DNA from: Allomyces arbusculus
Taxonomy: Eukaryota; Blastocladiomycota; Blastocladiomycetes; Blastocladiales; Blastocladiaceae
Assembly (NCBI GenBank): GCA_027604705.1
Contig: JADHYV010000019.1
Coordinates: 310,376 to 374,375 of the forward strand
Length of the DNA stretch: 64,000 bases
Direction of reading: 5' to 3'
Shown here piece by piece: positions 5,113-27,140 of the stretch. How positions within the stretch are numbered: the first letter of the stretch is position 1; every line of letters starts with the position of its first letter. Under the pieces are notes generated by a model. The model did not search any database. It had not been told where the DNA came from and was given only the letters and a program-made list of their open reading frames with translations. The position numbers and the translations under genes are program-made.

Positions 5113-6344
5113 TTACTCTTCGTCCTCCTCCTCCGTGGTCCCATCAGCAACTGAAAAGTTGCTGGCCTCATTGGAATCGGCAATGCCAACCATGGACCCA
5201 CCCATCCACTCAGGCGCATTGATGTACGTGCCATCGAGGACACTAAATCCCGTGCCATCGTCCCACATGTCGTCGCCAAACGCGTCCTCGTCGAGCGAGA
5301 AGTCGCCGCCGTCGTAGGCGTCGTCGTTGAACGCGTCGTAATCGTACGCGTCCTCGACCGAATAGGCCGTGCCACGCAGGGGCGTCAACGGCTTGTAGCT
5401 CGGAACGTCGCGCGGGAGCGAATCGTCGTCTTCGTGGAAGACGACCTTGAAGTTCTTGACTTCGAGGTACGACCGGTCGAGACACTTGGTCGTCGACGCG
5501 TGATCGTGCGCGGCGCGAATCACGATCGGCGCCAGACCTTTCCGGCGCAGGATGCTCGCGGGCACCGTGATCGACAGCGACTCGTAGACGCCCGCGGGCA
5601 TCCCCGTCTGGCCGCGCGGCACCTCAATGCGGCGGAGCGGCTGAGCACCGTGCAGGAGTGTGATCGACTTGGTGTGTGGGCGGCAGACGGGCGACGTGGC
5701 CGACGGCGCCATGGCGTCGACGCGCACTTGTGCGAGGATCGTGACATAGTCGGCGCCCGTCGGGATCACGATCGGCAGCCGCGTCTGGAACCCGTACAGG
5801 TGCACGGCGCCGGACCCTTGCGTGATGCCGTCACGTGTCACTCGGCACGAGACGCGGTCCTGGTTGCAGGACACGCCCATCCGAACGTCTTGCTCGCCAA
5901 ACGGCATCAACATGAGGTTGGCGGGGGGAGGCGACGCGACCGACATGACTATGCAAGGAGAAAGGGAACGTCGGCATAAATGAGCAAAAGAGCGCGACAA
6001 GGACCGGGTTCCGAGGAAAAAGTGGATCACGCACGCTTCTGCGTCTTGGTCTGCTTGACGGTGGCAAGACGGCACTCGTACATGCGGCGCAGTGGGCTGC
6101 CAGCGGGAAGCGACCGAATCTTGGCCTTCAGCTGGGGAACCGTCATCTTAGTCGCACGGCGGAACGCGGGCGTGTGCATGGTCGTGGGCAGGTGCCGGCA
6201 CTTGATGTTCTTCTTCTCGTGCATCATCGACGGCTTGCCAGCCACGATGGGCGACAGATTGGTGGGCGACGCATCGGCAGCGGTCACGCCAGAGACGGCC
6301 GCGAGCGACGCGACAACGGCGGCAACAACGGTCGAGAACTTCAT
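5113..6344 (-). CDS. Array unit A: secreted two-exon protein of an unrecognised tandem family
   Basis: Exon 1 is 6035-6344 and exon 2 is 5113-5948, with an 86-nt phase-1 intron (donor GTGCGT, acceptor TAG); 381 aa. Residues 1-23 form a signal peptide (MKFSTVVAAVVASLAAVSG). A basic stretch ends in the family motif LKAKIRSLPAGSPLRRMYE (about residues 71-90). Exon 2 opens with an in-frame ATG (MSVASPP). It continues with a domain of alternating hydrophobic strands that includes YGFQT, the AAHDHAST.KC.D.S block and FKVVFHE, and ends in an acidic tail (DAYDGGDFSLDEDAFGDDMW). Two cysteines, in PVCRPH and TKCLDR, are shared with unit B and could form a disulfide. I know no family with this architecture. 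Likely secreted or cell-surface; function unknown. The tail is the most diverged of the intact copies. Confidence 0.8.
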
Positions 6345-7944
6345 TTTGGACGAGCAGAAGGTTGGAATAGGCGCCGTGGCCAGCAGGGCGCGATGGGAGC
6401 ACGAGTAAGCAAGAACGAATGAGCACTGCAAGATCGTTGAACGCCGGCGCTCGCCAGCTATTTATACGATTGCGCAGCGTGCTGGACGCGTGCGCGCGCA
6501 CGCTGGTCGTGGTTTCTGGCCGTTCTCTCTGGTCGTACTCGTGCTCTCTTGCTCGAACTGCCAGATCGACCACTCCGCCGCCCTGACGGGGGACCCAAGA
6601 TCAAACGGCGTTTCCCACGAGCGCGTGGGAAGTTGGCCACTGCACCGCTGCCGCCGCAACATCTCGAGCCGTCCCTCTGTGACCATTGCCTGTACGGACT
6701 GCCGCGCTTCGTCTCCCAAGACATGCGGTCACGATGACCTGCCCCACACGACGAGTCGGACTGCGTCGTCCTTGCCCATCACAACGACTGGTCGACCCCC
6801 TGGCACGGAACTGTCCGCGCGACGCGTCTCGAAATGTCGGGTGATTTGCAGCAAGTTGTGGCTCGGATCGTGGGCTCTTGATCAAGTTGGTGGGAGCTCC
6901 GGCGCCGCTTGCAACTCATGCATGACCGTTTGGTCGTTGCCCAAATGGTCTTCTGCTGACGGAAAGAACATTTTCTAAAACAACATTGTGTGCCTCCCAT
7001 TCCTCGCAACCTCGTGGTCGTACTCAATTCGACAGAATGCTGCACTTGTGCCCGCCCACTTTGGTCCTAATCCGTCCCAGCGTCTACGTTGTTTGGCCGG
7101 AGTGAGCCTTGGCCAACTGCTGCCTATGCTGCGCCGTGTCAACATTGTTTACGATCAATCAAGCCCGTCAGACGGCCAGAAACGGGTGGATAAATTAAGT
7201 ATTAAGTCAAAAAGTATCAGCGGACAGGCCGGAAGTGAAATTGGTTGAGTAAGAGGATCAACAAGCCTTGTCGCTGGGTGTCACTGCCACAGGCTGCTGA
7301 ACAAAGTAGGTCGTGCTTGACAGGCCAATTCTCACATAGGTGGCGCCAATAGCTGACAAACAGAGTCAAATAATGGAAATTATCAACGGTCAAGACAAGA
7401 AGGAAATTGAACGTGGACGGAGGGTGGGTATGGCTAGCAATCGCTGTTACTCCGATAGGTGAAAACAATTCGAGCCACACTCGAAGATGGGCGGAGAGAG
7501 TCAAGCATGGCAAAATCACTTTCTTCAAGTCTTTTTTCTTCATGAAGTGCGCGAGATCAACGGGTCGACTTGGAGGGCGCGCAGGTTGACAGGAATGCAA
7601 AGACTAACGTCATGAGCTGCACCACCAGCATCGATTCGGTCGATTCGATAGTGGCACGAACGTGCATGTGGTTCGCTCACACCTCTCTGCATGCAAGCAA
7701 TGGAGACGGAAATGCGGTCCAAGCACGATCACGGACTGAAGAACGTGACCATCAAATCGACGAGCTCACTAAATCATGTATAGCAGTTCCAAATCAATGA
7801 ACAGCAGCAACGACCCGTCCCATCAAAACGGCTCCGATTGCTCGACCAGCAAGCATTCACGGTCACGGGCGAAAACAAGAAAACGACACTCTCTCGTCAC
7901 TATCCACCACGACTTCGTCGCCTCACGATCAATACGCGCGCGTC
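6345..7944. other. Spacer between array units A and B (1.6 kb)
   Basis: Contains the unit A promoter and the 3' flank of unit B. The longest ORFs are under 165 codons and show no family features, so I support no gene. Nearly the same length as the spacer between units B and C. Confidence 0.5.
6459..6466 (-). promoter_or_regulatory. TATA box of array unit A
   Basis: TATAAATA on the minus strand, about 115 bp upstream of the unit A start codon. Units B, C and D have TATA-like elements at comparable distances. Confidence 0.6.
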
Positions 7945-9628
7945 TTAGTACTCGTCGTCGGCGGCATCCTCATCGTACGAATCCTCAACCGAGTAATCAC
8001 CACCGTCGTACTCGTCATCGGCAGCATCCTCATCGTACGAGTCCTCAACCGAGAAATCGCCACCGTCGTAGGCGTCCTCGGCCTCGTCGTCGACATCGTC
8101 GGCCGGACCGGCCTCGTCAGCGACCGCGAAATCGCCGTCGTAGTTGTCCTCCCACATGTCGTCACCCTCGTACGCCGCGTCCTCCGAGACCGAGAAGCCC
8201 TCGTCGTAGTTGTCCTCCCACATGTCGTCACCCTCGTACGCAGCGTCCTCGGAAACGGAGAAATCGCCATCGTAGTTGTCCTCCCACATGTCATCGTACG
8301 ACTCGTCCCACGAGTCGTCAAACGACGCGTAGTCGTAGCCGGACTCGGACACCGAGAACTTTGCCTTGGCACCGGCAGCGGCCGTCTTGGGCTTGCGCAC
8401 GGGCAGCGTGTCATGGAACTGCACCTTGAACCCCTTGATCTGCAGGATCGAGTGGTCCATGCACTTGGACGTCGACGCGTGGTCGTGCGCGGCCTGCAGC
8501 GTGATCGGCGCCGACGTATGCGACAGCTTGGAAACAGGCACACGCAGACGCAGCGTCTCGTACTTGTTGCTGCCGTGCGACCCCTTGGGGAACCGCAGCC
8601 CGCCGAGGGGCTTGCCGCCGTGGAAGACGGTAATGGCCGTGTCGGACTTGTGGCACACGGGCGCCGAGCCCGGGCGTGACGGGGTCTTGCCGACCATTTT
8701 CGTGTTGCGCTGCACGGGCTTCTTGGCCTGCGCCTTGATCTTGGCCAGGAACGTCACGTACTTGGTCCCGGCCGGGATCGCGAGCGGCTTGGCAGTCTGG
8801 AAACCGTACTTGTGGATCACGCCGTGACCGGCCGTCAGACCCTTGCGCACGAGACGGACCGACCCGTCGGCGCCGTGCTGGATCGCGGCGGGGAAGGGCG
8901 GGTCGACAAACGGCACGAGCCCGGCGGGCGACGAGTGCGCGTGCGTCTTGTGCGCGCCAGGGGCCGCGGCCGTCGACATGACTAGCAGTGTAGAGAGCGG
9001 CGCGTCAGTTTCATGGTCCCGCATCAAATTGCGCTTTCCATACGGAAGCAAAAAAGCACGTACGCGTCGCCGTCTTGGGCTTGGTCTTGGCGGCAAGCAG
9101 TCGCTCGTACATGGAGCGCAGCGGCGAGCCGGCGGGCAGCGCGCTAATCTTGGCTTGCAGCTGCGCGACCGTCATCTTCGAGCGGCGCGTCGCCGCGTTC
9201 CGAATGCCGCCCGCGACCTTGCGCACCGGTTTCTTGCCGCCGGCCTTGAGGGGCTTGCCGCCGCGAATCGCCGACGCGATCTTGACCCCCTTGGCCTTGG
9301 ACTTGCGCACGGCCGCGTGCTTGTTGGCGGCCATCTTGGCGCGGCGCGCGCGCAGCTTAGCCTGCAGCTTCGCCTTCTGCTCGGCCGTCAAGTGCTGCGT
9401 GTTGCGCTTGATGTTGCGGCGCTTGATGTGCTTGGTCGGCTTCTTGAGCGCAGCGGCGACCGTCAGGTGCGGCGCCGTCGCCACGGGCGCCGGCGCGCCG
9501 TCCGTCGACGCGGCCACGTCCTCGATGATCGCGTCCTCGGACGACGAGAAGAGCGGCTTGATCGGGTTCGGCTCGGCAGCGACGAGCGCGGTCACGGCCG
9601 CGAGCAGGAACAGCGCCTGGACCTTCAT
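7945..9628 (-). CDS. Array unit B: secreted two-exon protein with basic exon 1 and acidic repeat tail
   Basis: Exon 1 is 9064-9628 and exon 2 is 7945-8981, with an 82-nt phase-1 intron at the same place as in unit A; 533 aa. The signal peptide is MKVQALFLLAAVTALVAA. Exon 1 is very rich in Lys/Arg (KHIKRRNIKRN, KAKLRARRAKMAANK) and ends in the motif LQAKISALPAGSPLRSMYE. Exon 2 starts MSTAAAP and has the full middle domain (YGFQT, PVCHKSDTAITVFHGG, AAHDHASTSKCMDHS, FKVQFHD). It ends in an acidic tail built from about 22-residue repeats of the type DDMWEDNYDGDFSVSEDAAY and finishes DEDAADDEY. This is the most complete family member and the best reference for it. Predicted secreted and strongly bipolar in charge. 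Function unknown. Confidence 0.8.
8051..8267 (-). repeat. 217-bp segment nearly identical to 11344-11560 (units B and C)
   Basis: Lies in the acidic-tail coding region of unit B. Read side by side, the two segments have the same length and differ at only about two bases (in the codons around the GP of EAGPADD/EAGPAGD). The flanking sequence is clearly diverged. The segment contains the 66-nt repeat units. Confidence 0.75.
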
Positions 9629-11231
9629 GGTGGTGAGTGGTCGGGAAGTCGAGAGAGTCGGGCAGTTGCTCGGACGGCCAGCGGCGAGCAAGTGAGGTCG
9701 AGGAGTCGAGGTGAAGTGTCGAAGAGCCTGGAGAATCGAATCGGGGCGGGCGGTGCGCGGTATTTGTAGGCTCGGCCGGAGCGGTCTTGCAGGCGCGCGC
9801 GTACGCGCGCGGGCGTGGAAGGGCATCGCGGCTCGGTGTCGCGGGCATTTCGCGCACGCACTTCGAGGTACCAACCGGCGAGAACGTCGGGGCAGGTGGG
9901 AACCGGCCGGTCGGTGGGAACAGATCACAGTTGGGTTGCACGCGCACTTTCACCACCAAGGCGCGAGACGCGCCCCGCCGCCTCTTGCGGGTGCCGCCCT
10001 GCGAGGAAGGCACGCTTACACAAGGCACGCGCCCGTGGGTAACCGCGGAGAACGTCCGTGCGCGCGCGTGCCCTGCCAGCCCGAGCCGGTCGAGGAGAGG
10101 ACGTGCAGTGAACTGGTGATTGGCAGGCCGTGAACAGGTGGGTTCGAAGGGACCGGCACGCCAACAGCGCACCGGATCACGGCTTCGCCATTGCGGTCCT
10201 GGGAACCGCGTGAGAGCCCACCTCGGCTGCCCAACCACTGTTTCCCAGATCCGCATCGTGTCCCCCACCGAGAACCAAGGGCGGTCAGGCGTGTCTGCGG
10301 CTCTCTTGCTTGATCGCGCGAGGCTGGCCCATGTCGCGCCGTCAGGCGGTCAGGTTGTCCCTGGACCGGGGAAGCGCGTGGAGATCATTTCGTTTGCGGG
10401 CAGTGTGCGTGATGGCGGTGTCCGCGCTGGCGGGATCGGGATGCGGGTAGCGAAGCCAAGGACAGGGCCAAGGTTGCGGTCCTCAGGGCGAGACGGGCGA
10501 CCAACCGATGTGTGACACACGCATGCCGTGATCACTGTCTCGCTCCGATTTCCCGTCGTCCTCAGGCCGCAGCGTCGATGCCAAAGCTGTCGCCGTCTTG
10601 GCGCGCGGGTCGCGTCGACCCTGGAAGTGCTTGTGCTTAGGGTACTTTGGTGATTTGGAGGCGGGCATTGAAGTCATCCTGCCGCCCACTCACTTGTGCC
10701 AGGTCTGTCCATGCTGGCGCAACAAAATTATTATCGGGTGGAGAACGTCAGATGAAGCGTTATGGATCTGCTTTTTTCGTAGCTGTCCGTGGTGACGACG
10801 CGCTGCTGCAAAACAATAGCGCCCGTCATACGGCGCGACTTCAGCTCCAACATCGCCATCTCGTCGCCTCTCAACCATGACAAGGAGAAGGGAAGGAGAG
10901 CCAAATAACGCTCCTCACAGAGAGGCGGTGCAGGGGAATTACTGACAAGGCGTTGCATGATGACCATATCGAGAAGAGAAATGCAACGACGTACTTTTGG
11001 GATTTCGCATGCAGCTCTACATGATACGACAAACCTACTCATAATCCCCTCGACTAAAACGACCACTGCTGCTCGACCAGCAAGCACACTAACCCTTGGG
11101 GACCGAAAAGCAAAAAAAAAAAAAAAAACACAATCCAAAGCTCGGGCGAGAGGGACGGTGCCGACAATCGTCCGCCCGCCCGCCCGACGCGGTCCACAAC
11201 GACAACCTCCTGGCGCGTCGCTTCACGCGAC
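9629..11231. other. Spacer between array units B and C (1.6 kb)
   Basis: Contains the unit B promoter and the 3' flank of unit C, including a run of 16 or 17 A near 11106-11122. No ORF here shows family features or a plausible domain. Confidence 0.5.
9761..9768 (-). promoter_or_regulatory. TATA-like element of array unit B
   Basis: TACAAATA on the minus strand, about 135 bp upstream of the unit B start codon. Position and context match the TATA-like elements of the other units. Confidence 0.4.
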
Positions 11232-13315
11232 TTAGTACTCGTCATCGGCCGCATCCTCCGTGAACGTGTCCTCGACCGAATAGCCCTCGCCGTCGTACGC
11301 ATCGTCCCACATGTCGTCGCCGCCGTACGCGTCCTCAGACACCGAGAAATCGCCACCGTCGTAGGCGTCCTCGGCCTCGTCGTCGACATCGCCGGCTGGA
11401 CCGGCCTCGTCAGCGACCGCGAAATCGCCGTCGTAGTTGTCCTCCCACATGTCGTCACCCTCGTACGCCGCGTCCTCCGAGACCGAGAAGCCCTCGTCGT
11501 AGTTGTCCTCCCACATGTCGTCACCCTCGTACGCAGCGTCCTCGGAAACGGAGAAATCGCTGCCGTCGTACTCGTCATCGGCCGCGTCCTCGCCGTACGC
11601 ATCCTCGACCGAGAAATCACCGCCGTCGTACGCGTCGTCCCACATGTCGTCGTACGACTCGCCCCACGCATCGTCAAGCGACGCGTAGTCGTACCCCGAG
11701 CCGGCGAGAGACATGACTAGACACGAGAGGGGCGCGTCAGCTCACCGCCGCAACGTCACCCACCCGCGATCACCGACCGACGAGGCGACGAGGAAGACTA
11801 CGCACGCGGTGTAGTCGTGGTCGCGACCTTGGGCTTCTGCCCTGCCGCGCCACCAGACTTGGCCGCCTGCAGCCGTGCGAGCCGGCGCTCATACGTGACG
11901 CGCAGCGGCGATCCGACAGGCAGCGCATTGATCCGGTCGCGCAGCAGCTCGGCCGTGGTCTTGCGCTTGCGTGGCGCGCCACCGGTCTTTTTCACGACGA
12001 CGAACGTCTTGCGCACCGTCTTGGGCTTGCGCACGATCGTACCTGGTTTGCGAATCCTGGGGATCCCTGCCGACCACGTCTTGGGCTTCTGCCCTGCCGC
12101 GCCGCCAGACTTGGCCGCCTGCAGCCGTGCGAGCCGGCGCTCATACGTGACGCGCAGCGGCGACCCGACGGGCAGCGCATTAATCCGGTCTCGCAGTAGC
12201 TCGGCCGTGGTCTTGCGCTTACGCGGCATGCCAGGCTTGTTCACGAAGATGGTCTGGCGCACGGTCGTGCCCTTGCGCACAGGTTTCGTCCCGGCCGTCC
12301 GCGTCTTGGCCTTCTGGCCCGTCCCGGGCTTCCCGTGAATCCGCGGCTGCCGGATGATTCCGCGCGTGATCGTGAAGGGCCCCGACGCGGTCATGACCGG
12401 CGCTGACGCGCTCGTGATCGGCGCCGTCCGCATCGACCCCGGAGCCGATTTGGGCACAATACCCGCCGCCTTCAGCCGGTCAGCATGGAGGAGCCGCGTG
12501 CACCGCGCGCGCAGCTGGTCCCGCTTCGCCGGGTCAGTCGGGAGCGACACCTTGCCCTGACTCAGCTTGGGCGAGACCACCGCTGAATTGGGCGCGTTCG
12601 GGAACGGCAGCTTGACCTGCCCGAGGAACGGCTTGTGCGGCGCGACCGGGGCCGAGTAGACCGGCGGTGCGCGCGGGGCCGGCGGCGGGGGCGGCGCGTA
12701 GACCGGCACGCGTGGTGCGGGGGGCGGCGGCGGGAACTTGTACGGGATCGGCTGCCACGCGACTTTGGGCGTCCACGGCGCCGGCTGCGGGGCGCGCGGC
12801 GGGGCGCGCGGAGCCGGCCGTCGCGCCATGGCCTCGCGGAGTCGCACCTGCATCTGCTCCATTTCCTCCATCGGGCTCAGCCGCCGACTGGCCTGCGCTC
12901 CCGCGCCCGCGCGCGCCGACAACAAGCTGGCGCGCCCGTCTTCTTTGGCGAGCTGTACACACTGCGCGCGCAGCCGGCGCTCCTGTCGCTGCTTCCGCTT
13001 TTGCTGTTTCTGTTGCTGCTGCTCCTGCCGCTGCTTCTGCTGCTGCCGCTGCTGCCGAATCCACTGCGCCGTCGCCTGCCGCTGCAACGGCGACATTTTC
13101 GCCAGGAGGGCCATCGTCTCACGGCCAAATTCGGCGTACGTGATCGGGCCGTCGTTGCGCATGACCGCGGGGCGCGTCGCCGTCATGACAGGCGCGGCCA
13201 CGGTCGATGCCGAGACGTCGTCGTAAAACGCGTCCTCAGACGCCGGCGCCTTGTTGGCTGTGACGAGCCCGGACGCGGCCGCAGCAGCGACAACGAACAG
13301 CGCGGTGAGTTTCAT
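11232..13315 (-). CDS. Array unit C: secreted protein with expanded exon 1 and no middle domain
   Basis: Exon 1 is 11806-13315 and exon 2 is 11232-11716, with an 89-nt phase-1 intron; 664 aa. The signal peptide is MKLTALFVVAAAAASGLVTA. Exon 1 has grown to about 500 codons. It holds a Gln/Arg-rich segment (about residues 75-115, runs of QQQ and KQRQE), a Pro-rich segment (PPPPPAPRVPVYAPPPPP) and two near-identical copies of a block containing RDRINALPVGSPLRVTYE. Exon 2 starts MSLAGSGYDYAS and goes straight into the acidic DDMW/NYD tail, so the roughly 200-residue middle domain of units A and B is missing. The tail ends TEDAADDEY. Reading frame and splice sites are intact, so it is probably functional but remodelled. 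Function unknown. Confidence 0.78.
11344..11560 (-). repeat. 217-bp segment nearly identical to 8051-8267 (units B and C)
   Basis: Partner of the segment in the unit B tail. High identity confined to this block suggests gene conversion or recent exchange between paralogues. Confidence 0.75.
11828..12226 (-). repeat. Tandem duplication inside unit C exon 1 (SPLR motif block)
   Basis: Two copies, beginning near 11828 and 12080 (offset about 252 bp). Each encodes KTTAELLRDRINALPVGSPL followed by RVTYERRLARLQAAKSGG. They differ by a few mostly silent bases over about 140 bp. They lie in the last third of exon 1. Confidence 0.8.
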
Positions 13316-13979
13316 GGTGACAGCTTGGCGGGTCGCGTCGTGGGCGAAAGGGCGGGAAGACGGGCTGGGACTTGGTCGGTCGGGGTCCTGCTTGCGTGCG
13401 TGCGTGCTCGACAACCGGCAGCTGGTACGGCGAGCGGCGGACGTCGTCGGTTGGCCTGGAGAGAGCATGGCGGCGGGTCGGGCGCCCGGTCTTTATGGGC
13501 TCGCCGGTAACCCGCGCCGACCGGGCCGGCAGCAGGCGCGCGTCGGTGGTCGTTTCTGCAAGCGGGCATTGAGAAGAGCGCGGGTGTGCCGTGGGAGGTG
13601 CTTGGGCGCTGGTTCTGCCGCGCACCCAACGCGGCGGGCGGTGCGAGACGTGACGGTACCAGTAAAAGTGAAGTGTGAGGCATGGCCGCAGGCCACCGCA
13701 CGCACCGAAAAAGATATCCATTTTCATCTTATTCTCGCATGCGACACAAAACGAATGGGTGGAGGCCATCAAATGCTCAAATACGCGACGTCCGTGCTGG
13801 AAGAGTGGAAAGAGCCACAACGAGGAGAACGACACTTGCTTCTAGGTGCAAGCCTCGTCGACGATGGAGGCTCAGGTTGCCCGACAAGCAACCAAGAACG
13901 AAAGACAGGTCATACCTGCAAAGCCCGATTCACAAACCCAAGACTTGTCGGCCAGCTCGGATGCGCGCGGTCGCACTAA
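13316..13979. other. Spacer between unit C and pseudogene unit D (664 bp)
   Basis: Contains the unit C promoter. No additional gene seen. Much shorter than the A-B and B-C spacers. Confidence 0.5.
13491..13499 (-). promoter_or_regulatory. TATA-like element of array unit C
   Basis: CCCATAAAG on the minus strand, about 180 bp upstream of the unit C start. The surrounding 60 bp resembles the unit D promoter at 15250-15320. Confidence 0.45.
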
Positions 13980-15103
13980 CTAGTACTCGTCGTGGACTGC
14001 GTCCTCATTGAACGTTTCCTCGACGGAAAAATCACCGCCGTAGTCACCCGCCCCCTTGATCGAGAGGCCTTCGCCCATATCGTCGTACGAGTCGTCCCAC
14101 AAGTCGTCAAACGGCGCGTAGTCGTAGCCCGACCCGGCGAGCGACAAGACTAGATCCACTAAACAAAAAATCACATGCCGAGGGCGTTAGATCACCGTAC
14201 CCCCCGCAATCGGCCAGCCAAATGCAACAAATGTACTCTTCGCCGGCTTAGGCTCGTTCAATCGCGCGAGCCGGCGCTCATACACGACGCGCAACGGCTA
14301 CCTGACGGGCAACGCATTGATCTTCTCCTGCAACAGATCGGCCGTCCACTTGCACGGGCACGAGCACCATGGACCCGTCGAGGACCGCGACGGCCTGATC
14401 GCGCCTGCGGCCGCCGCCGCTGCCGCGCGATCGGCCTTGGCGAGCCGCTCGCACTTCGAACGCAACTGGTTTCGCAAGACCGGGTCCTTCGGGGTCCGCA
14501 CGTGCCCTGGGGCCGGAAGCGGCTTGGGCGTTCCGCCGGAGCCGCGCCCCCGCTCCGACACCAAGGGCGGACGCACGAACGCGCGCGCCCGCTCTTGTTC
14601 GGCCACGAACGGCGCGAGTACCGGTGGTGGCCCGGGGGCGACCAGCGGTCCCGATGCGGGCGCGGGCGGGCCCTGCCTGGCGCGCCGCGCCGCGGCCTCC
14701 TTAGCAATGCGTTCCATGTCGATCATTCGGCTTCGCGACGACCTCCCGTCGCGGTCGGCGGCGGCGGGCGGCTCTGCCTGGCACCCTGCGCCGACGTGCG
14801 ACTCGCGACAGCGTACGCACGCGTGCGCCGCAGCAGCGACCGGTCTTCCTTGGCGAGTTGCGCGCACTGCGCGCGCAAACGCTGTGCCATCAACGCCCGG
14901 ATCTCCTTGGACGTCAGCGGCGGGACATTGCGGGTCGTCGTGGTCGTCCGGGGCGGCCAGTCGCGCATCGCTGGCGCTACGCCCATCGATGCGGCCACGT
15001 CGGCGTCGTGGAACGCGTCCTCGGACGCGGGGGACGTCGCGTCGGCCGTGACGAGGCCGGAGGCGGTCGCGGCGGCGACGGCAAAGAGTGTGATGAGCTT
15101 CAT
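13980..15103 (-). pseudogene. Array unit D: decayed copy of the secreted family (closest to unit C)
   Basis: Starts with an intact signal peptide (MKLITLFAVAAATASGLVTA) at 15103 and the C-like block RLRAQCAQLAKEDRSLL, then loses frame near 14723-14760. The second frame continues with DMERIAKEAAARRARQGPP and reaches LLQEKINALPVR followed by an in-frame TAG (plus-strand cta, about 14315). The stop replaces the Ser of the GSPLR motif, and PLRVVYERRLARL continues after it. Exon 2 (13980-14149) keeps the TAG acceptor and a short acidic tail (GSGYDYAPFDDLWDDSYDD), but its conserved ATG has become TTG. With at least one frameshift and one nonsense codon it should not make a full protein. Confidence 0.8.
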
Positions 15104-15287
15104 GATGGCGGTTGTCGGATCGGGGCGAGGGGAGAGGGAGAGCGCGTTGGGACTCGGTCGCGGTCGGTCAGATCACGGTCGTGGTGCGTGCTCGACGATC
15201 AGCGGCGAGCAGAACGAGGGACGGCGAGCGGCGGCGGGGTCATCGATTGGCGTGGAGAGGGCATGACGGCGGGTCGGACACGTGGGC

Positions 15288-15293
15288 TTTATA
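15288..15293 (-). promoter_or_regulatory. TATA box retained upstream of pseudogene unit D
   Basis: TATAAA on the minus strand about 185 bp upstream of the former start codon. The promoter seems better preserved than the coding region. Confidence 0.5.
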
Positions 15294-15882
15294 GGCGCGC
15301 CGGTCGCTCGCGCAGGCCGGACCGGTAACGCGCGGCGGTGGGAGCGCGTCGTCGGTGGTGCGAGCGCGCTCCGAGAACGGGTGTGAGCGTCGGTATGTGG
15401 GAGGGAGCTTTGCTGCTGGTAGCTCGCGCGCCCACGTCAGGTCGGCGGCAGGCTGGCTTGGCGGGGGACGCGTCGGCACCCCCATCGTGAAGCTGCAGGA
15501 CGAGGCACAGCTGCGCACCACGGCCGGCAGCACTGGTGCCGACGTCGCGCCCTTGCCGCTGGTTCGTGTCCTCGGAGGCTTGCACAACGGAGTCAATTTG
15601 CTGTGGATCCCGATCTGGCTGGCCACTTTGTTCGGTCCAGCACCGGCCGCCACGACGGCGCGCCGGAATGGTTCGTTTGCTCCCAATGCGCGCGTGCTGG
15701 CGTGCTGTGGACGGGCAGGTCGAAGACTGACCATGATAATCGCGGGCAGCACAACTCTGCGGCACTGAATGCTTGCCTGGCGAGGAGCGACGAAGAAGAC
15801 AGATGCGCAGCTCAGCGCACCAACTCATTTTTTACGGAGGTATCAATCGAAGCAAACCCGCCAACGACAACTGCCAACCTGC

Positions 15883-15912
15883 GAGCACGCTAGAGCACGC
15901 TAGAGCACGCTA
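15883..15912 (+). repeat. Three tandem copies of the 10-mer GAGCACGCTA
   Basis: Perfect triplicate followed by a partial fourth copy (GAGCA). Lies in the spacer downstream of pseudogene unit E's position in the array. Role unknown, probably slippage. Confidence 0.85.
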
Positions 15913-16040
15913 GAGCATTGTTGGGTGCAGGCCAAAGAAGAGAGTGGGCCAAAAATGATTCGATCACCGACTAATCAAAGATTGCACAACTTGGCAGTCC
16001 CGCTGCCCTCACAGCTCTGGTGCGCGTGATCCCGCGCGCC

Positions 16041-17539
16041 CTAGTACGGATTGTCAGCCGCCTCGTCCTCGTCGCACATTTCTTTGACGGAGAAAAATTG
16101 CCTCCGTCTTACTCGTCATCGTACGCGTCCTCAAGCGAGAAGCCCTCGCCGTCGTACGACATGTCATCGGAGACGGAGAAATCGCCGCCGCATTACTCGT
16201 CGTCGTCAGCTGCGTCCTCGTCACACTCGTCCTCGGCCGAGAAATCGCCCTCGTCGTACCCACCGTCCCACGCGTCGTCGTTCGCCGAGTAGTCGTACGC
16301 CTCGTCGGCGACAGAATACTTGCCGCGGCGCCTGGGCGGGTGCGCCGGCATGGCCGGCATCCTGCCGTGGAACTCGACCTTGAGCCCGCGGAACTGCGCC
16401 CACGACCGGTCCGTGCACGGCTTTAACATGGCGTGTTACTGCGTGACCTGCAGCGTGATGGGCGGCGGCACGGGCAACAGGACGGCCACGGGCATGATCA
16501 CTTCCAGGCGCGTCTCGGGGCGTTGCCGTAGGTGCCTGGGTCAATGTTGTCGTGCCGGCCACCTTGCTGCCGTGGAAGACCGTCACGGTCTTTTGCCGCG
16601 TCGCACACGTCGGGTAGTTGGGCTGTGGCCCGCCGGGGATGCGACCGGGTATTTGGGATACAGTCGCGTACCAGACGCGGATCGTCGCGACCTTGGCACC
16701 CGGCGAGACCACCAGCGACCTCGTCGTGCGGAACTCGTACTTGTGCTGAATGCCCATGCCGGCGGTCGTCACGCCGTCCTGCACAATGCGCGACGCGCCG
16801 GCCGCGTCACCTCCACCCGGTCGGGGAATGGCGAGTCGACAAACGGCATCTGACCGGCGGGCGACCCAAACTCGGCGGGCGTCTCGGCGATCGACATGAT
16901 TGGTGAAAGGGCGAAGGCAGTGCCAGCCGAGGAAAATCATCCGTCACCACCGCTCGTCCAAAAATCAAACACAAGACGAGGCGCCATGTTCATGAGCTTC
17001 TTCATGCGCGCGAGCTTGCGCTCGTATTAGATGCGCAGCGGCGACCCCAAGGGCAACGAGTTGATCTTCTTCTGCAGCCGCGTTGCGAGCGGCACCGTAG
17101 ACTTGCCCGTGCCTGTCGGCTTGCGCGACGCCTTGGGCCAGCGCGTCATGTCACCGGGCTTCCCGTGAACCTGTGACCGCTGGGCACTGGTCGGGATGAC
17201 CGGCTTGAACGGCGTGTTCTTGCGCTTCCTGGCTTGCTCAGCACGCATCGCGCGCACCCAAGCTTGCTGCTTCACCCGCTCCTCGGGCGTCGCCCACCGC
17301 CACTTGATCATCGGCTAGCCCCCGCGGCGCTTGGTCGTCTTCTTCGGCTTCTTGAGCGCAGCCGCGACCGCCAAGTGCGGGTTTAGCTGCGTGATCGGCG
17401 CGGGCGCGCCGACGGTGGACGCGCCGATGTCGTCAATGAACGCGTCCTAGGACACGGCGCGCTCTGGTGAGAGCGGGTTCGCGTCGGCAGCGACAAATGC
17501 GGCCGTGGCCGCAAGCACGAACAGCGCCTGCAATTTCAT
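16041..17539 (-). pseudogene. Array unit E: heavily decayed copy of the secreted family (closest to unit B)
   Basis: Exon 1 begins with a B-like signal peptide (MKLQALFVLAATAAFVAA) at 17539, then has stops within ERAVS*DAFIDD and KRRGG*PMIKW. The SPLR motif survives as KKINSLPLGSPLRI followed by a stop. At the expected start of exon 2 (MSIAETP, ATG at 16895-16897) the acceptor AG is AA. The middle domain is still readable in pieces (HKYEFRTTRS, CATRQKTVTVFHGSKV, GLKVEFHG) in more than one frame. The acidic tail is interrupted by stops and ends DNPY with a stop at 16041. Clearly a pseudogene with promoter, coding and splice lesions. Confidence 0.85.
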
Positions 17540-18315: not shown

Positions 18316-21300
18316 ATGCAGGAAATCGAGGTCCCGCCGCGCGACTGCTTCAAGTACTATGTGCAGGTCACGCACGCGCCCAAGACCATCATGTGGAACT
18401 TCACGACCAAGCGCAAGAACATTGGGTTTGGCCTCTTCTACCAGCACGACGCGACCGACGTGCGGTCGCGTACGTGGTGCTGCTGCTCTAGTCTGCCTGC
18501 TGCTCGCCGTGCCGCGTGCTGACCCCCGTCCGGCGACGACTGCAGAGTCCACCGCCGAGTCCGACACCACAGCCACCTCGCCCGCCGCACGCCGCCGCAA
18601 CCTCAACCTGAACCCGTTTTCCGGGAAACGGTCGGCCAACGGGTCCGCTGGCGACCACCACGCGCCCTCCTCCAACAACGGGTCGCCCAAGGGGTCTGCC
18701 GACGCATTGGATGTCGCGCCCGACGACGCGTCGATCCACCCGGCCGATGCGAGCGCGCCACGCGCGCGCACATCGAGTAAAGCCGCGCGCGAGCCGGCGC
18801 TTGAGGAGATCTTGCCCGTGCAGCGGTACGAGTCGTCCAAGACGACGATCAAGGGCCAGAAATCGGTGGATCGCGCAGGGACTTACGTGCTGTATTTTGG
18901 TACGGTGGCGGTGACTTTGCGTTGCAGCGGCGCTGTGGTTCTCCTGACTGACTTGTGGATGTGCACGCTCTAGATAACACCTTTTCACGCAATACGTCCA
19001 AGAAGATGACGTTTTTCGTGGCGATGCGCGAGGGCGGTATGTCCTGCCCCTCCTTGTCCTGCCGGATCTGCACCGCTGGTTCGCAACATGTGGCGCTCAC
19101 CAACCGCACTCTCGATCCACAGAGGCCGTCGAGGACGAAGCCAAGCCGGAACTCGCTGGGTGGCTGCTTAAAAAGAAACGCAAGCGCATGCAAGGGTGGG
19201 CCAAGCGGTACTTTGTCTGCGACCGCGGCCACCTCGCCTACTTCAAGTTCCCCGCGGGTTTTTGCCGCGGATCGATCCCGATCGCGCTGTCGGCCATTTC
19301 CGTCGACCTCGACCACCGCATCATCAATATCGATTCGGGCACATCGCTCTGGCACTTGCGCGCGCTGACGCGCGACGATTACGATAAGTGGTTGGCGGTC
19401 ATCAAGCGGTACAAGGCCGTGCAGGCCGCGGATTTGGCGTTGCGCACGAGGCAGCCGTCTCTCGCCGGGTCGGCGGCAGCGGAAGAGGAGGCGAATGAGG
19501 CCATGGCGAAAGAGGCCAAGGAGGCGACGGCTGCGGCGGAAGCGTCGTTGCTGACGTTCTTGGAAAAGGTCGAGGAGCGGGTGCGGGGGCTGATGGCGGC
19601 CGTCGAGGGCGAGGATGCAGACGCGGTGCCGGCACCCGTGGCCGATGCTGCGCGCGCGTTGGCCGACCTGATGGCGGCCGAAAAGCAGGACTTGCTCGAC
19701 CAGCTTGAGTGCGAGTGGGCCAAAGCCAAGTCTCTGCAACTCGCCTACCAGGAAATCCTGCGCGAGAGCGCGGATCTCAAGATGCGGCTCGAGACGACGG
19801 TCGCGGCCGGCACGCCGCCGATGCCGGGCACGCCCACGCTCCCCGTCGGGTCGCGCCCGTTCTCGCTGATTTCGCAGCACCGACGCACCAATTCGATTGC
19901 GTCGACGGCCTCGGACATGTGGTTTGATGCCGAGGAAATCGTGATTGCGAATGGCGGTGGCGAGTCGTCCGACGAGGACGACGAGGACGGTGCACGTGCG
20001 GGCAAGGCGGCAAGCACGCACGAAATGGTGATTTACGAGGAGCATAACGAGGACGAGGACGAGGACGATGACGACGACTCGGATTACTCGTACTCGCATA
20101 CCGACGCCGAGTCGATTGCGCCGTCCATGTCCCAGCGGCACGCGGCATCGGCAAGTACCAGCGGGACGGGGTTCAGCGGGCCAACCGTCACGTCGGCGCT
20201 GGCGTCGCCGCCACTGACCATGGTCGAGCGGCGCCGGTTCCTGCCGTCGCCCGTGACTGGGGACGACGTGTCGATCATGTCGATTTTGCGCCGTAATATC
20301 GGCAAGGATTTGAGCACCGTGACCATGCCCATTTCGCTCAACGAGCCGATCAACCTGTTGCAGCGACTCGCCGAGGAACTCGAGTACTCGGACCTGCTCG
20401 ACCGCGCGGCCCGCGCGACCGACTCGCTTGACCGGCTCAAGTATGTGGCCGCCTTTGCCGTCTCCGGGTACGCATCGACAGCGCACCGCGCGTCGCGCAA
20501 GCCCTTCAACCCGTTGCACGGCGAGACCTACGAACTGGTGCGGCCAGACCGCGGGTTTAAGTACATTGCCGAAAAGGTGAGTCATTACCCGCCGATCATG
20601 GCATGCCATGCCGAGGGCGATGCCGGATGGACGTTTTTCCAGGACTCGAAGATTGCGTCCAAGTTCTATGGCCGGTCAATGGAGTTTTACCATTCGGGCA
20701 CGGTGCACGTCGTCTTTCCCGCGACTGGCGACCATTTCACCTGGGCGAAAGTCACGACCTGCATGCGCAACTTGATTGGCGGCGGGACGCGGTCGCTCGA
20801 CCATTACGGGAAAATGATCGTGCGCAACCATACGACGGGCGAGCGCGCGGAAATGACGTTCAAGGAGAATGGCGGTGGCGGGTGGTTGGGCGGCGGGTCG
20901 GTCACCAAGAACGAGGTGGTCGGGAACGTGATTGGCGCCAAGGGGAACAAGGTCGCGACCGTCCAAGGGCGCTGGAACGAGTCGCTGTTCTGGACGGGGC
21001 CCGATAACTTGTCGGTGTCGATTTGGAAGGCAAACCCGGCATTGCCGAATGTCGACCAGATGTACGGGTTCACGCAGTTTACGATCGAGCTCAACGTAAG
21101 TCTGTTCTCTTTACCGTCGAGGTGCTATGCGCTGGGACTTTCGACTGACGACATTCTCTCTCTCCATGACGTTAGGAAATCACCGACGACATTGCGGACT
21201 ACCTCCCGCCAACCGACACGCGATTCCGGCCCGACCAGCGGCTCTTCGAAGAGGGCCACACGGCCGAAGCCGAGGCAGAAAAGGTCCGCGTCGAGGAAAA

Positions 21301-21490
21301 GCAACGCGCGTTCCGGCGCGAGCTCGAGGCACAAGGGCGGAAATGGGAGCCGCGGTGGTTTGCGGCCCACCCGGCCGAGTACTCGGCCGACCCGTCGGGC
21401 GCGGGCAACGACGAGTGGGTCTATGCGGGCGGGTACTGGGAGGCGCGCGAGGCAAAGGCGTGGCCGCCGACGGATTTGCAGCTGTGGTGA
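18316..21490 (+). CDS. Oxysterol-binding protein homologue, Osh3-like (GOLD-PH-FFAT-ORD)
   Basis: Lipid-transfer protein expected at ER contact sites, exchanging sterol or PI4P. Exons: 18316-18469, 18546-18899, 18974-19036, 19123-21095 and 21176-21490 (952 aa). The N-terminus is a GOLD-type domain (KYYVQVTHAPKTIMWNFTTK, then DNTFSRNTSKKMTFFV). A PH domain starts near residue 200 (ELAGWLLKKKRKRMQGWAKR). A FFAT-like motif, DMWFDAEE, lies near residue 457 and would bind VAP in the ER. The ORD has FNPLHGETYE, a signature reading EKVSHYPP (near residue 677) where EQVSHHPP is usual, and the C-terminal PPTDTRFRPDQRLFEEG block. The start at 18316 fits the Kozak context CCACCATGC; a longer form from 18061 is possible. 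Confidence 0.9.
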
Positions 21491-21590
21491 AAGCAGTGTG
21501 ATGTTTGTGTTTGTTGATTGGGCGGTATGGCCCCGGGCGACCGACGCGGATGGCTGGTTTTGCGTACCGGCGTGGTTCAAATGTTTTCCC

Positions 21591-21604
21591 CCCCCCCCCC
21601 CCCC
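21591..21604 (+). repeat. Poly-C tract (about 14 C)
   Basis: Long C homopolymer in the convergent intergenic region. Similar G/C runs occur near 17557, 32988 and 39791-39860, all outside coding exons. Confidence 0.8.
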
Positions 21605-21773
21605 AGAGAAGAATACTGCGAAGGGTCGACAAAAAAAAAACGCGATCACATGGAAGTCTCACAGCGTACATCAGCAGTGCGAGACGCGACGATACCCGTT
21701 ACTTCGCTCCGGCCGTCATGATCTGGCCAGGGCGTAATCCCACTATGCAAGGAAGGGAGTACTCTTTGATCAT

Positions 21774-24358: not shown

Positions 24359-27140
24359 TCAAAAGTCGCTCGCCGCGTCCGAATCGTACCCTTCAATCTC
24401 CAACGGAATGTCCTCGTCCTCGTCCTCGCTCAGACTCACGCCCGCGAGCGCGCGCGCCGTCAGCGGGAGCGCGGGGACTCGGGTCAGTGACGTCGCCGCC
24501 GGCGTGAGCGCGGTCAGCGGAGATGCGATCGCCTGTGCCGCCGCTGGGGTGGATCCAGCGGACAGCGGCGGCAGCGCACGCGCGGCGGCAGCTGCGGGTC
24601 CCGCCGGCGCCGTGGTGCTCTTCTCGCCCTTCTCCTCTTCATCTTCCGACTCCGGCGCGTCCGACCGCGTTGACGCCGTATGCCCCGCACTAAACGACGC
24701 ATCGCTCGCGTCATCGGTCGCGTGCGAGCTCGTGCGCGTCGTGTCGGCCTCGGACGCCGTCTCGCCTGCACCGAAATCGTCCGAGTACATGTCCGAAGGC
24801 GCCGGCGAAGTCGACCGCGGTGGCGACGCGGTGATCTGCGGCTTGGCCATGGACGCGTCGGGCGAGATCGCAGATAGGTCTGATTTGGCCATGGATACGT
24901 CAGGCGACCGGTCCGACTTGGCCATGGATGTGTCGGGCAAAATTGCCGACAGATCCAAATTGGCCATGGACACGTCGGGCGACTGGGCCGGCTTGGCCAT
25001 TGACGCGTCGAGCGAGGCCGGCCGGTGAGAGAACTTGGACGTGTCCGGCGACTCTTGCTCGCTGAAATCCTCGTCGATACTCTCGGAAACGAAGCTCTTG
25101 TCAAAACCGCCCTTGTCGAGACCGCTCTTGTCGAGGTCGCTGTCGTCGGCAATCGCGTCAATGCGGGGTCCCGTCGTCGGAATCACGGACGGGGCCGAAT
25201 CAAGGGTCGACAGTCGAGCAGCAAGAGCGGCGGCACTTGCGGTGATGGGGGCAGAGGTCACTGCGATCTCCGCGCCACTCGACGGCTCGGCAGGCGGCGG
25301 TGGCGAGGTAAAGAGTGTTGCGGTTAGCGACGTAGCTTTGTCGGCCGGCAAGTTGGAATCGTCTTTGCCGATCGTATCGCTCCGCACCGGCCCAGCAAGC
25401 GGGTCAAGCCCAGGATGCTTGATTGGCCGGAGCGCCCCGCCGGCTAACGACGCGACCGGAGCGAGCGGCGGCAGGCCGAGCGCGGAAAGACCCAATGCGG
25501 GTGCCGGTGCGAGTGCAGGTACGGGTGCAGTATTGGCTAGAGCAGATGGGAGACCTTGAGCAGCGGGTACGGGTGCGGGAGCAAGTTCCGCTGGAACCGC
25601 TCGTGCAGAATCGAGCGCCGGCGTCGGCGACTCACGCTCGATTTCCGTGCCATTCGGACGACCCACCGAGCTCAACTCCTCGTCATCGCCATCATCGAGC
25701 AAATCGTCAATGTCGATACTGGACAGCGACGGTGAGCGAACCGGCGCGGCCGCGCCGTCCGGCTCCTTGCGCAGCGCCGTCCACGGCTCGACGGACTCGG
25801 CCAGATGCGCTGACGGCGGCGTTGGTACGAACGGCGACAGTGCCGACGATACGAGCGCAGCGACGTCGTTCTTTTCCACCTCGACCGGTACGTCCTGCGG
25901 CACACGCGGTTCCGCGGGTACAGGCCCCAGGGGAGCAGACACGGCTGCGCCAGCGGCAAGGTGCCCCCACGCGCGGCGCGACCCGCTGCTTTTGGATGCC
26001 GACGACAGGGATTTGTCGAGCTCCGAGGTTTCGGGCAGGCACTCTTCGACAATGTCCTCGTCGACGATGACGCTCTCGTCCGGCTTGGGCGACGTGCTGT
26101 GGACCGGCGAGGAGGGCTTGGACGCGTTCAGCTGGTCGATGCTGTCGTCCCAGTCGTTGGAGGCGTCGGCGTCCTTGGAGAACTCGACCTATAAACAACG
26201 ATGGGTCAGCGTTGATCAAGCTGAAGTGTGCAGGGAACTGAGATGCATACGCGCTTGTCGTACTCGAACTGCGCGTCGCCCGGCTTGATGCGAATTTGCT
26301 CAAACTCGGCGTTCATTTGCGCCTTGATCAGCGCGACCTGCTCCTCGCTACGCGTCGCGTCAGCAGTGAGTAATAACGTCGCTCAATTCTAACAGGGTCG
26401 CCAACGTACTCGAGCTTGTTAAGGTCCACATCGCTCCCGACCAGCTGAATTTGCCGCATGGTCTTGACAGCGGGAGTCGTGACCCCATCATGCACAGCCG
26501 CGGCTGGCACGGTCGAGAGCGCGACAGGCGCAATGGAGAGAGGAGCCACGCGCGCAGATTGCGGCATCAACGGCGCCATGACCGGAGGCGACGCCGTACG
26601 CATAGCGGGCATCGTCGGCGACCCCTCCCCCGACTCGGCACGCTTCCCCACCGTCTCCCCCTGTTCACCGCGCGACTCGAGCGCGCCACCCCGCAATGAC
26701 ATGGACGACGACGCCGACAACGGCATCGCCTGTGCCGTTGCCGTCGCGACCCCCAGCGCGCGCGCAATCGCGGCCGTCTTGTTGATTCGGTCAAGCCGCG
26801 CTAGCAAATCGCGCACGGCCGGTTCGCCGATACTGCGGAACACGTCGCCGTGCCGGTCCATCAGCTGCGCGGCGGCCTCGGCAATGGATCGCGCGGCCTT
26901 GGCGCGGCGCCATGCGCGGATCGGGATTCGTCGCCGTCGTCGACGATGGTGCGGCGCATTGCCGGCCGTATTGGGCTTGCCGGTCCCGGGCGATGGCGGG
27001 GCCGCGAGCACGTCGTAGTCGACAAAGAGGACGGGCTCGGTCGGGTGGAAGTAGACGGTGCGCGCGACGAGCTGGTGCGGGTGCGGCAGCGGACTCGCGG
27101 AGGCCAACCGCGCCGTGCACGGTAAGGTCATGTCGGGCAT
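24359..27140 (-). CDS. CEP19: CEP19-like centrosome/basal body protein with a long disordered C-terminal extension
   Basis: CEP19 acts at the mother centriole and basal body in starting cilium assembly. Exons 26410-27140, 26251-26347 and 24359-26188 (885 aa). The N-terminus has TVYFHPTEPVLFVDYDV, a basic linker (RRRRRRIPIR) and AEAAAQLMDRHGDVF, then a helix (EPAVRDLLARLDRI). The conserved C-terminal core is assembled across two introns: DVDLNKLDEEQVALIKAQMN, EQIRIKPGDAQFEYDKR and VEFSKDADASNDWDDS, which is a characteristic CEP19 pattern. Animal CEP19 ends there at about 165 residues, but here about 590 further low-complexity residues follow. That extension includes repeats of the type SMAKSD.SPDV. 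The core match is strong and the tail is unexplained. Confidence 0.78.
24841..25010 (-). repeat. Imperfect SMAK repeats in the CEP19-like C-terminal tail
   Basis: Five spaced copies of an SMAK/SMAN-type motif with intervening acidic or Pro residues. They are visible in DNA as repeated TTGGCCATGGA on the plus strand, the last copy degenerate. Probably a degenerate short tandem repeat. Confidence 0.7.

What the first reader, a model, noticed from the sequence alone, without database searches (positions are those of the whole stretch)
5113..17539. Five-copy tandem array of an apparently undescribed secreted protein family
Units A-E are all on the minus strand, each with a signal peptide exon, one phase-1 intron at the same place (…C|TC ATG TC) and an acidic second exon. 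I cannot match the middle domain (YGFQT … AAHDHAST.KC.D.S … FKV.FH) or the SPLR motif to a known family. Clustering, copy-number change and secretion suggest a fast-evolving surface, wall or host-interaction gene family. The last point is inference.
Basis: partly seen in the sequence, partly recalled or inferred. Interest (0 to 1): 0.85.

Follow-up and report, generated by a model that had tools for sequence, protein, structure and literature searches.

The report
Charge-balanced secreted fungal protein family
A zoosporic fungus carries a two-locus family of apparently secreted proteins whose strongly basic front part and strongly acidic tail nearly cancel in charge from copy to copy, suggesting proteins built to condense outside the cell or to keep a cationic part neutral until release; no known relatives were found in the databases searched.

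Summary
The array is real, but 'five equal copies' is not. Units A, B and C are intact two-exon genes: signal-like N-terminus, basic exon 1 with an LPxGSPLR motif, 82-89 nt phase-1 intron (C|TC ATG TC), acidic exon 2. D and E are decayed. The middle domain is in A, B and decayed E only. A second, larger cluster of relatives lies on contig C4; searches of this genome found members nowhere else. One gene elsewhere is a rhodopsin-cyclase fusion, which fits a zoosporic fungus.

The middle domain has no significant match in Pfam, PDB sequences, PHROGs, phages, viral contigs or prokaryote genomes. AlphaFold2 gives a beta jelly-roll (pTM 0.69 and 0.75) that resembles many jelly-rolls weakly.

New here: the basic part (+22 to +70) and the acidic tail (-28 to -62) co-vary, leaving six intact proteins at -8 to +8 (r 0.97; 4 of 720 re-pairings as balanced). 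Exon 2 also moves between paralogues as a cassette: about 99% identical in two C4 genes whose first exons are nearly unrelated.

Best guess (0.35): self-associating, charge-balanced extracellular matrix or adhesive proteins. Main rival: charge-neutralised precursors of cationic effector peptides. Function is inferred only.

The parts
6035..6344 (-). unit A exon 1: signal-like N-terminus, basic region, SPLR motif
5113..5948 (-). unit A exon 2 (middle domain about 5434-5904, acidic tail to stop)
9064..9628 (-). unit B exon 1: signal-like N-terminus, K/R-rich region, SPLR motif
8982..9063 (-). unit B intron, 82 nt, phase 1
7945..8981 (-). unit B exon 2 (middle domain about 8413-8913, acidic aromatic repeat tail to stop)
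11806..13315 (-). unit C exon 1: signal-like N-terminus, Q-, P- and K/R-rich regions, two SPLR motifs
11232..11716 (-). unit C exon 2: acidic tail only, no middle domain
14230..15103 (-). unit D exon 1, decayed (lower end approximate)
13980..14149 (-). unit D exon 2 remnant: acidic tail only
16985..17539 (-). unit E exon 1, decayed, three stops (lower end approximate)
16112..16897 (-). unit E exon 2, decayed, middle domain and tail pieces in two frames, no acceptor AG

Best explanation
A zoosporic-fungus family of secreted, charge-balanced block polyampholytes. Each protein has a basic N-terminal part (K/R-rich, mostly low-complexity, with a short LPxGSPLR element), usually a beta jelly-roll domain that may bind a glycan, and a disordered-looking acidic tail rich in Tyr, Trp and Phe. 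Proposed mechanism: the basic part of one molecule pairs with the acidic tail of others, so the secreted protein condenses at neutral total charge into a coacervate-like coat, glue or matrix (for instance at zoospore encystment), with the jelly-roll anchoring it to a polysaccharide. Shown: gene structure, paralogy, decay of D and E, charge balance, cassette movement of exon 2. Predicted: the jelly-roll. Inferred: secretion, condensation, glycan binding, place and time of action.
For: Signal-like N-termini in A, B, C and C4 relatives. N part plus domain pI 8.7-12.0 and tail pI 4.1 in the five proteins computed. With the split fixed at the domain end (C: at the exon junction), basic part and tail are +22/-28, +51/-55, +70/-62, +64/-57, +37/-39, +35/-43 in A, B, C, C4_150, C4_209, C4_218: totals -8 to +8, r 0.97; 4 of 720 re-pairings are as balanced; dropping C4_150 gives 2 of 120, dropping B 4 of 120. 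With C4_153 and C4_155 added, r 0.98, a fraction 0.0002 of 40320 re-pairings. Tails carry 12-17% aromatic residues and 60-66 nt repeats. Jelly-roll model in two runs, mean pLDDT 74.4 and 77.3. Coacervation of polybasic with polyacidic proteins in sandcastle worm cement, including a zwitterionic one, is described in PMC11277488 (passages seen).
Against: No transcript, proteome or assay. Charge balance rests on six to eight related genes; B and C4_150 share exon 2 by recent exchange, and lengths of the two parts also correlate (0.48). C4_155 is not balanced (-17). Even aromatic spacing in the tails beats shuffles only in C (0.01) and not clearly in A (0.10) or B (0.09). Fold matches are weak and mixed (TM at most 0.45 in the 50 rows shown each), so glycan binding is weak.
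Confidence: 0.35

Rival explanations
1. Charge-neutralised precursors: the acidic tail shields a cationic exon-1 product during secretion, and proteolysis releases cationic, perhaps antimicrobial, peptides, as proposed for alpha-defensins and cathelicidins.
For: The same kind of charge correlation is reported for defensin and cathelicidin propieces (PMC4571063, passages seen). Exon 1 evolves fast (pairwise dN/dS 0.47-1.48) and has several KR/RR sites in each of six proteins. Copy number varies.
Against: The acidic tail has no KR/RR site in 5 of 6 proteins (one in C4_209), so release of the tail by a Kex2-type protease is not seen. The jelly-roll between the two parts has no place in this scheme. 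Basic parts are long (95-483 residues without the domain in five proteins).
Confidence: 0.2
2. Fast-evolving surface or recognition proteins (of self, prey or host), with variation created by cassette exchange of exon 2 between two clusters; charge is incidental.
For: Two clusters, decayed copies, exon-2 exchange: C4_150 vs C4_216 95-100% per 60-column block through the domain beside mostly 41-65% in exon 1 and intron (dS 0.02 vs 1.11).
Against: The most recently exchanged part, the domain, is under constraint (dN/dS 0.17-0.24 among B, C4_150, C4_216), and exchange homogenises it rather than diversifying it. Charge balance would be unexplained. No membrane or GPI anchor was tested.
Confidence: 0.2
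3. Acidic, aromatic tails bind calcium or other cations and the proteins act in cation storage or mineral deposition.
For: Tails have 29-39% Asp+Glu.
Against: Does not explain the matched basic part; no known calcium-binding motif was tested or found.
Confidence: 0.07

Closest known systems
Charge-neutralised defensin and cathelicidin precursors (charge balance hypothesis; PMC4571063, passages seen)
   Same: Secreted, multigene, variable copy number; anionic and cationic parts whose charges co-vary
   Different: Different order (basic first, acidic tail last), ten times larger charges, a jelly-roll between, no six-cysteine or cathelin domain, no dibasic site that would free the tail in 5 of 6 proteins
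Sandcastle worm cement proteins (polybasic, polyacidic and zwitterionic; PMC11277488, passages seen)
   Same: Secreted polyelectrolytes with strong basic and acidic parts; zwitterionic member
   Different: Animal proteins, charges mostly on separate proteins; no relation by sequence was tested; phosphorylation and DOPA unknown here
Carbohydrate-binding modules with jelly-roll fold (CBM4, 6, 16, 28)
   Same: Predicted beta jelly-roll of about 160 residues among the better Foldseek matches
   Different: TM-scores at or under 0.44 in PDB rows shown, 5-16% identity, equally good matches to Eph receptor domains and virus capsids; no Pfam CBM hit

Membership tests
Known protein family in Pfam | score over the curated cut-off | tested here: not met
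   Best sub-threshold hits: DUF5123 E 1.5, Selenoprotein_S E 2.5, LAG-3 E 0.035 (unit C); 9 of 9 domain sequences without a hit at E 10
Carbohydrate-binding module, jelly-roll type | beta jelly-roll fold | tested here: inconclusive
   All-beta models with pLDDT 74.4 and 77.3, but Foldseek TM at most 0.44
Carbohydrate-binding module, jelly-roll type | sequence similarity to a CBM family | tested here: not met
   No Pfam or PDB-sequence hit
Carbohydrate-binding module, jelly-roll type | binds a glycan | not testable with these tools
   needs protein
Defensin/cathelicidin-like charge-neutralised precursor | charges of two parts co-vary | tested here: met
   r 0.97, 4 of 720 re-pairings as balanced
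Defensin/cathelicidin-like charge-neutralised precursor | protease site that separates the anionic part | tested here: inconclusive
   KR/RR in tail in 1 of 6 proteins; other proteases not considered
Defensin or cathelicidin by sequence | Pfam defensin or cathelin domain | tested here: not met
   none reported for A, B parts or C
Coacervating adhesive protein | condenses under secretion conditions | not testable with these tools
   needs protein

The most novel reading that the evidence does not exclude
A previously unknown class of single-chain, secreted, charge-balanced polyampholytes in zoosporic fungi, in which selection keeps total charge near zero while exon 1 drifts and exon 2 is swapped as a cassette through the intron, giving a self-condensing underwater coat or glue.
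Probability: 0.25. Interest if true: 0.8.

Novelty: new variant of a known kind. Interest (0 to 1): 0.5.

Why it matters
If the charge balance is selected, it is a direct, easily tested design rule: a protein family that evolves freely in sequence but holds its two blocks at equal and opposite charge. That would give a genetic handle on how wall-less fungal zoospores build a coat or stick under water, or else a fungal parallel to charge-neutralised host-defence precursors. If it is chance in eight related genes, what remains is an ordinary lineage-restricted tandem family with decayed copies and exon exchange.

Tried and rejected
Considered and rejected: (1) five intact copies of one architecture, because D and E are broken and C and D lack the middle domain. 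(2) Spurious GC-rich frames, because exon-2 substitutions between B and C4_150 concentrate at codon position 3. (3) Allelic or assembly duplicates, because the C4 genes share only parts with the window units and sit among other genes; an assembly error as cause of single breaks in D or E is not excluded. (4) A viral or bacterial origin: no hit in viral contigs, prokaryote contigs or phages; the viral fold search gave 32 of 1420 matches at E 0.001 or less, all weak by TM in the 50 shown. (5) A known RNA in the window: no Rfam match. (6) Regular aromatic spacing as a general feature: clear only in C. One comparison, labelled x, used wrong coordinates (1 codon) and is discarded; the C4_150 vs C4_216 row there includes badly aligned tail. 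Led nowhere: literature searches for such a family in Blastocladiomycota (two unrelated papers listed), for fungal secreted coacervating polyampholytes (one unrelated paper listed), for Blastocladiella encystment adhesion (listing only) and for a Blastocladiella assembly (listing only).

Full report
What was given. The finding describes five tandem units (5113-17539, minus strand) of an undescribed secreted family. The window is bases 310376-374375 of contig C19 in a genome of 25.9 Mb in 197 contigs, about 56-72% G+C in 2-kb steps.

Organism. The genome has two rhodopsin loci (2 of 2 candidates over the Pfam cut-off, 0 of 14 control genomes). One reading frame holds both Bac_rhodopsin (E 1.1e-26) and Guanylate_cyc (E 5.4e-21); the other showed only the rhodopsin in the frame examined. 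Rhodopsin-guanylyl cyclase fusions are described from zoospores of Blastocladiella emersonii (Blastocladiomycota) and from Chytridiomycota (PMC12264004, passages seen). A zoosporic fungus is therefore likely; Blastocladiomycota fits the high G+C content (recalled, not tested).

The units. A, B and C are intact: ATG at 6344, 9628, 13315; introns of 86, 82 and 89 nt in phase 1; products of 381, 533 and 664 residues. D and E are decayed (see observation check). Exon 2 of A and B carries the middle domain and an acidic tail; C and D have the tail only. B and C tails are 87.9% identical over 354 nt. The SPLR element aligns among A, B, C (two copies), D and E and is recognisable in C4_209; C4_218, C4_150 and C4_216 have looser versions.

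Extent of the family. The middle domain of B found 12 matches in the genome, all on C19 or C4; two belong to E, so they are 11 loci, of which E, C4_166 and, by a stop before its frame, C4_152 look broken. The SPLR region found 8 of 8 and the acidic tail 14 of 14 matches on the same two contigs, and the divergent C4_152 domain 10 of 10. These counts are lower bounds by the tool's own warning. A scan for acidic frames listed 12 in the window and 19 in C4:142001-232000; I picked 5 and 12 of these by eye as family tails. Three C4 members (151.7-155.9 kb) are divergent; 153 and 155 read from a signal-like start straight into the domain in one exon, so the domain can do without the SPLR exon.

Cassette movement. 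C4_150 and C4_216, 66 kb apart in opposite orientation, are 95-100% identical in 60-column blocks from just after the start of exon 2 through the domain and into the tail, but mostly 41-65% (79% in one block near the signal region) upstream. Domain dS is 0.02 and exon-1 dS 1.11. blastn gives 93.1% over 956 columns because the tails differ at the end. B shares the cassette with both at dS 0.14-0.16, about 90-91% over roughly 1 kb. The simplest reading is recent copying or gene conversion with one breakpoint at the 3' end of the intron. The C4_216 join itself is unclear and I give no model for it.

Constraint. In the domain, dN/dS is 0.17-0.24 among B, C4_150 and C4_216, but 0.44-1.15 for the more distant pairs, where dS is 0.4-1.5 (Nei-Gojobori, no correction for base composition). 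For exon 1 it is 0.47-1.48. Exon 1 thus evolves fast or is weakly constrained in sequence.

Middle domain. Nine sequences align with two cysteines kept in all nine. phmmer gave two chance-level PDB hits (E 0.55 and 6) and the profile none. PHROGs gave four hits, best E 0.12. AlphaFold2 with two and three sequences gave all-beta models (pLDDT 74.4, pTM 0.69; pLDDT 77.3, pTM 0.75). Foldseek against PDB gave 3 of 785 and 6 of 1410 matches at E 0.001 or less: Eph receptor, mannanase with its binding module, Cry toxin; then circovirus capsids, a Bdellovibrio protein and an astacin-MAM protein. CBM4, CBM6, CBM16 and CBM28 appear lower. TM-scores of the listed rows do not exceed 0.44. I conclude 'jelly-roll, probably' and nothing finer.

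Charge balance. Net charge here is K+R minus D+E after an assumed signal cut (18-24 residues for the six two-exon genes, 29 for C4_153 and C4_155). With the split fixed at the domain end, the six intact two-exon proteins have basic parts of +22 to +70 and tails of -28 to -62, totals -6, -4, +8, +7, -2, -8 (A, B, C, C4_150, C4_209, C4_218). Mean absolute total is 5.8 against 17.2 for re-paired parts; 4 of 720 re-pairings do as well. With the split chosen to maximise contrast it is 2 of 720. Adding C4_153 (-6) and C4_155 (-17) gives r 0.98. Left out for want of an intact or full model: D, E, C4_152, C4_166, C4_168, C4_206, C4_211, C4_213, C4_216. The genes are related, so permutation overstates independence. 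Still, the two parts lie on different exons, one of which moves as a cassette.

Reading. A protein that is near neutral overall but split into strong opposite blocks, with aromatic-rich acidic tail and lysine-rich partner, is what one would design for head-to-tail association and condensation; I put 0.35 on an extracellular coat, matrix or glue. The same charge pattern is the hallmark proposed for defensin and cathelicidin precursors (PMC4571063, passages seen), the chief rival at 0.2. Recognition proteins diversified by exchange come third.

Noticed in passing
G000:C4:187121-191931 (L020): A second tandem set of three related stretches (about 69-79% identical), unrelated to this family as far as seen; not identified.
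   Followed up: no
G000:C4:206350-215150 (L022, L023): Three units (206, 211, 213) with a signal-like start MKFSNTLLL and the same acidic tail but a different middle with several possible introns: the tail seems to be shared by different heads.
   Followed up: partly
G000:C4:151751-155862 (L016, L017): Three divergent tandem members (72-73% DNA identity to each other); C4_152 has a stop between signal and domain.
   Followed up: partly
window 24839-25013: Internal repeat (79% over 100 nt) in a long open frame 24362-26188 on the minus strand that has no Pfam hit.
   Followed up: no
window 18978-21734: Oxysterol-binding protein with PH domain (Pfam E 1.2e-96) next to the array; with an Rtf2 gene at 605-1567 it gives ordinary housekeeping surroundings.
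   Followed up: partly
window 15883-15917: Short perfect tandem repeat, period 10, 3.5 copies, between units D and E.
   Followed up: no
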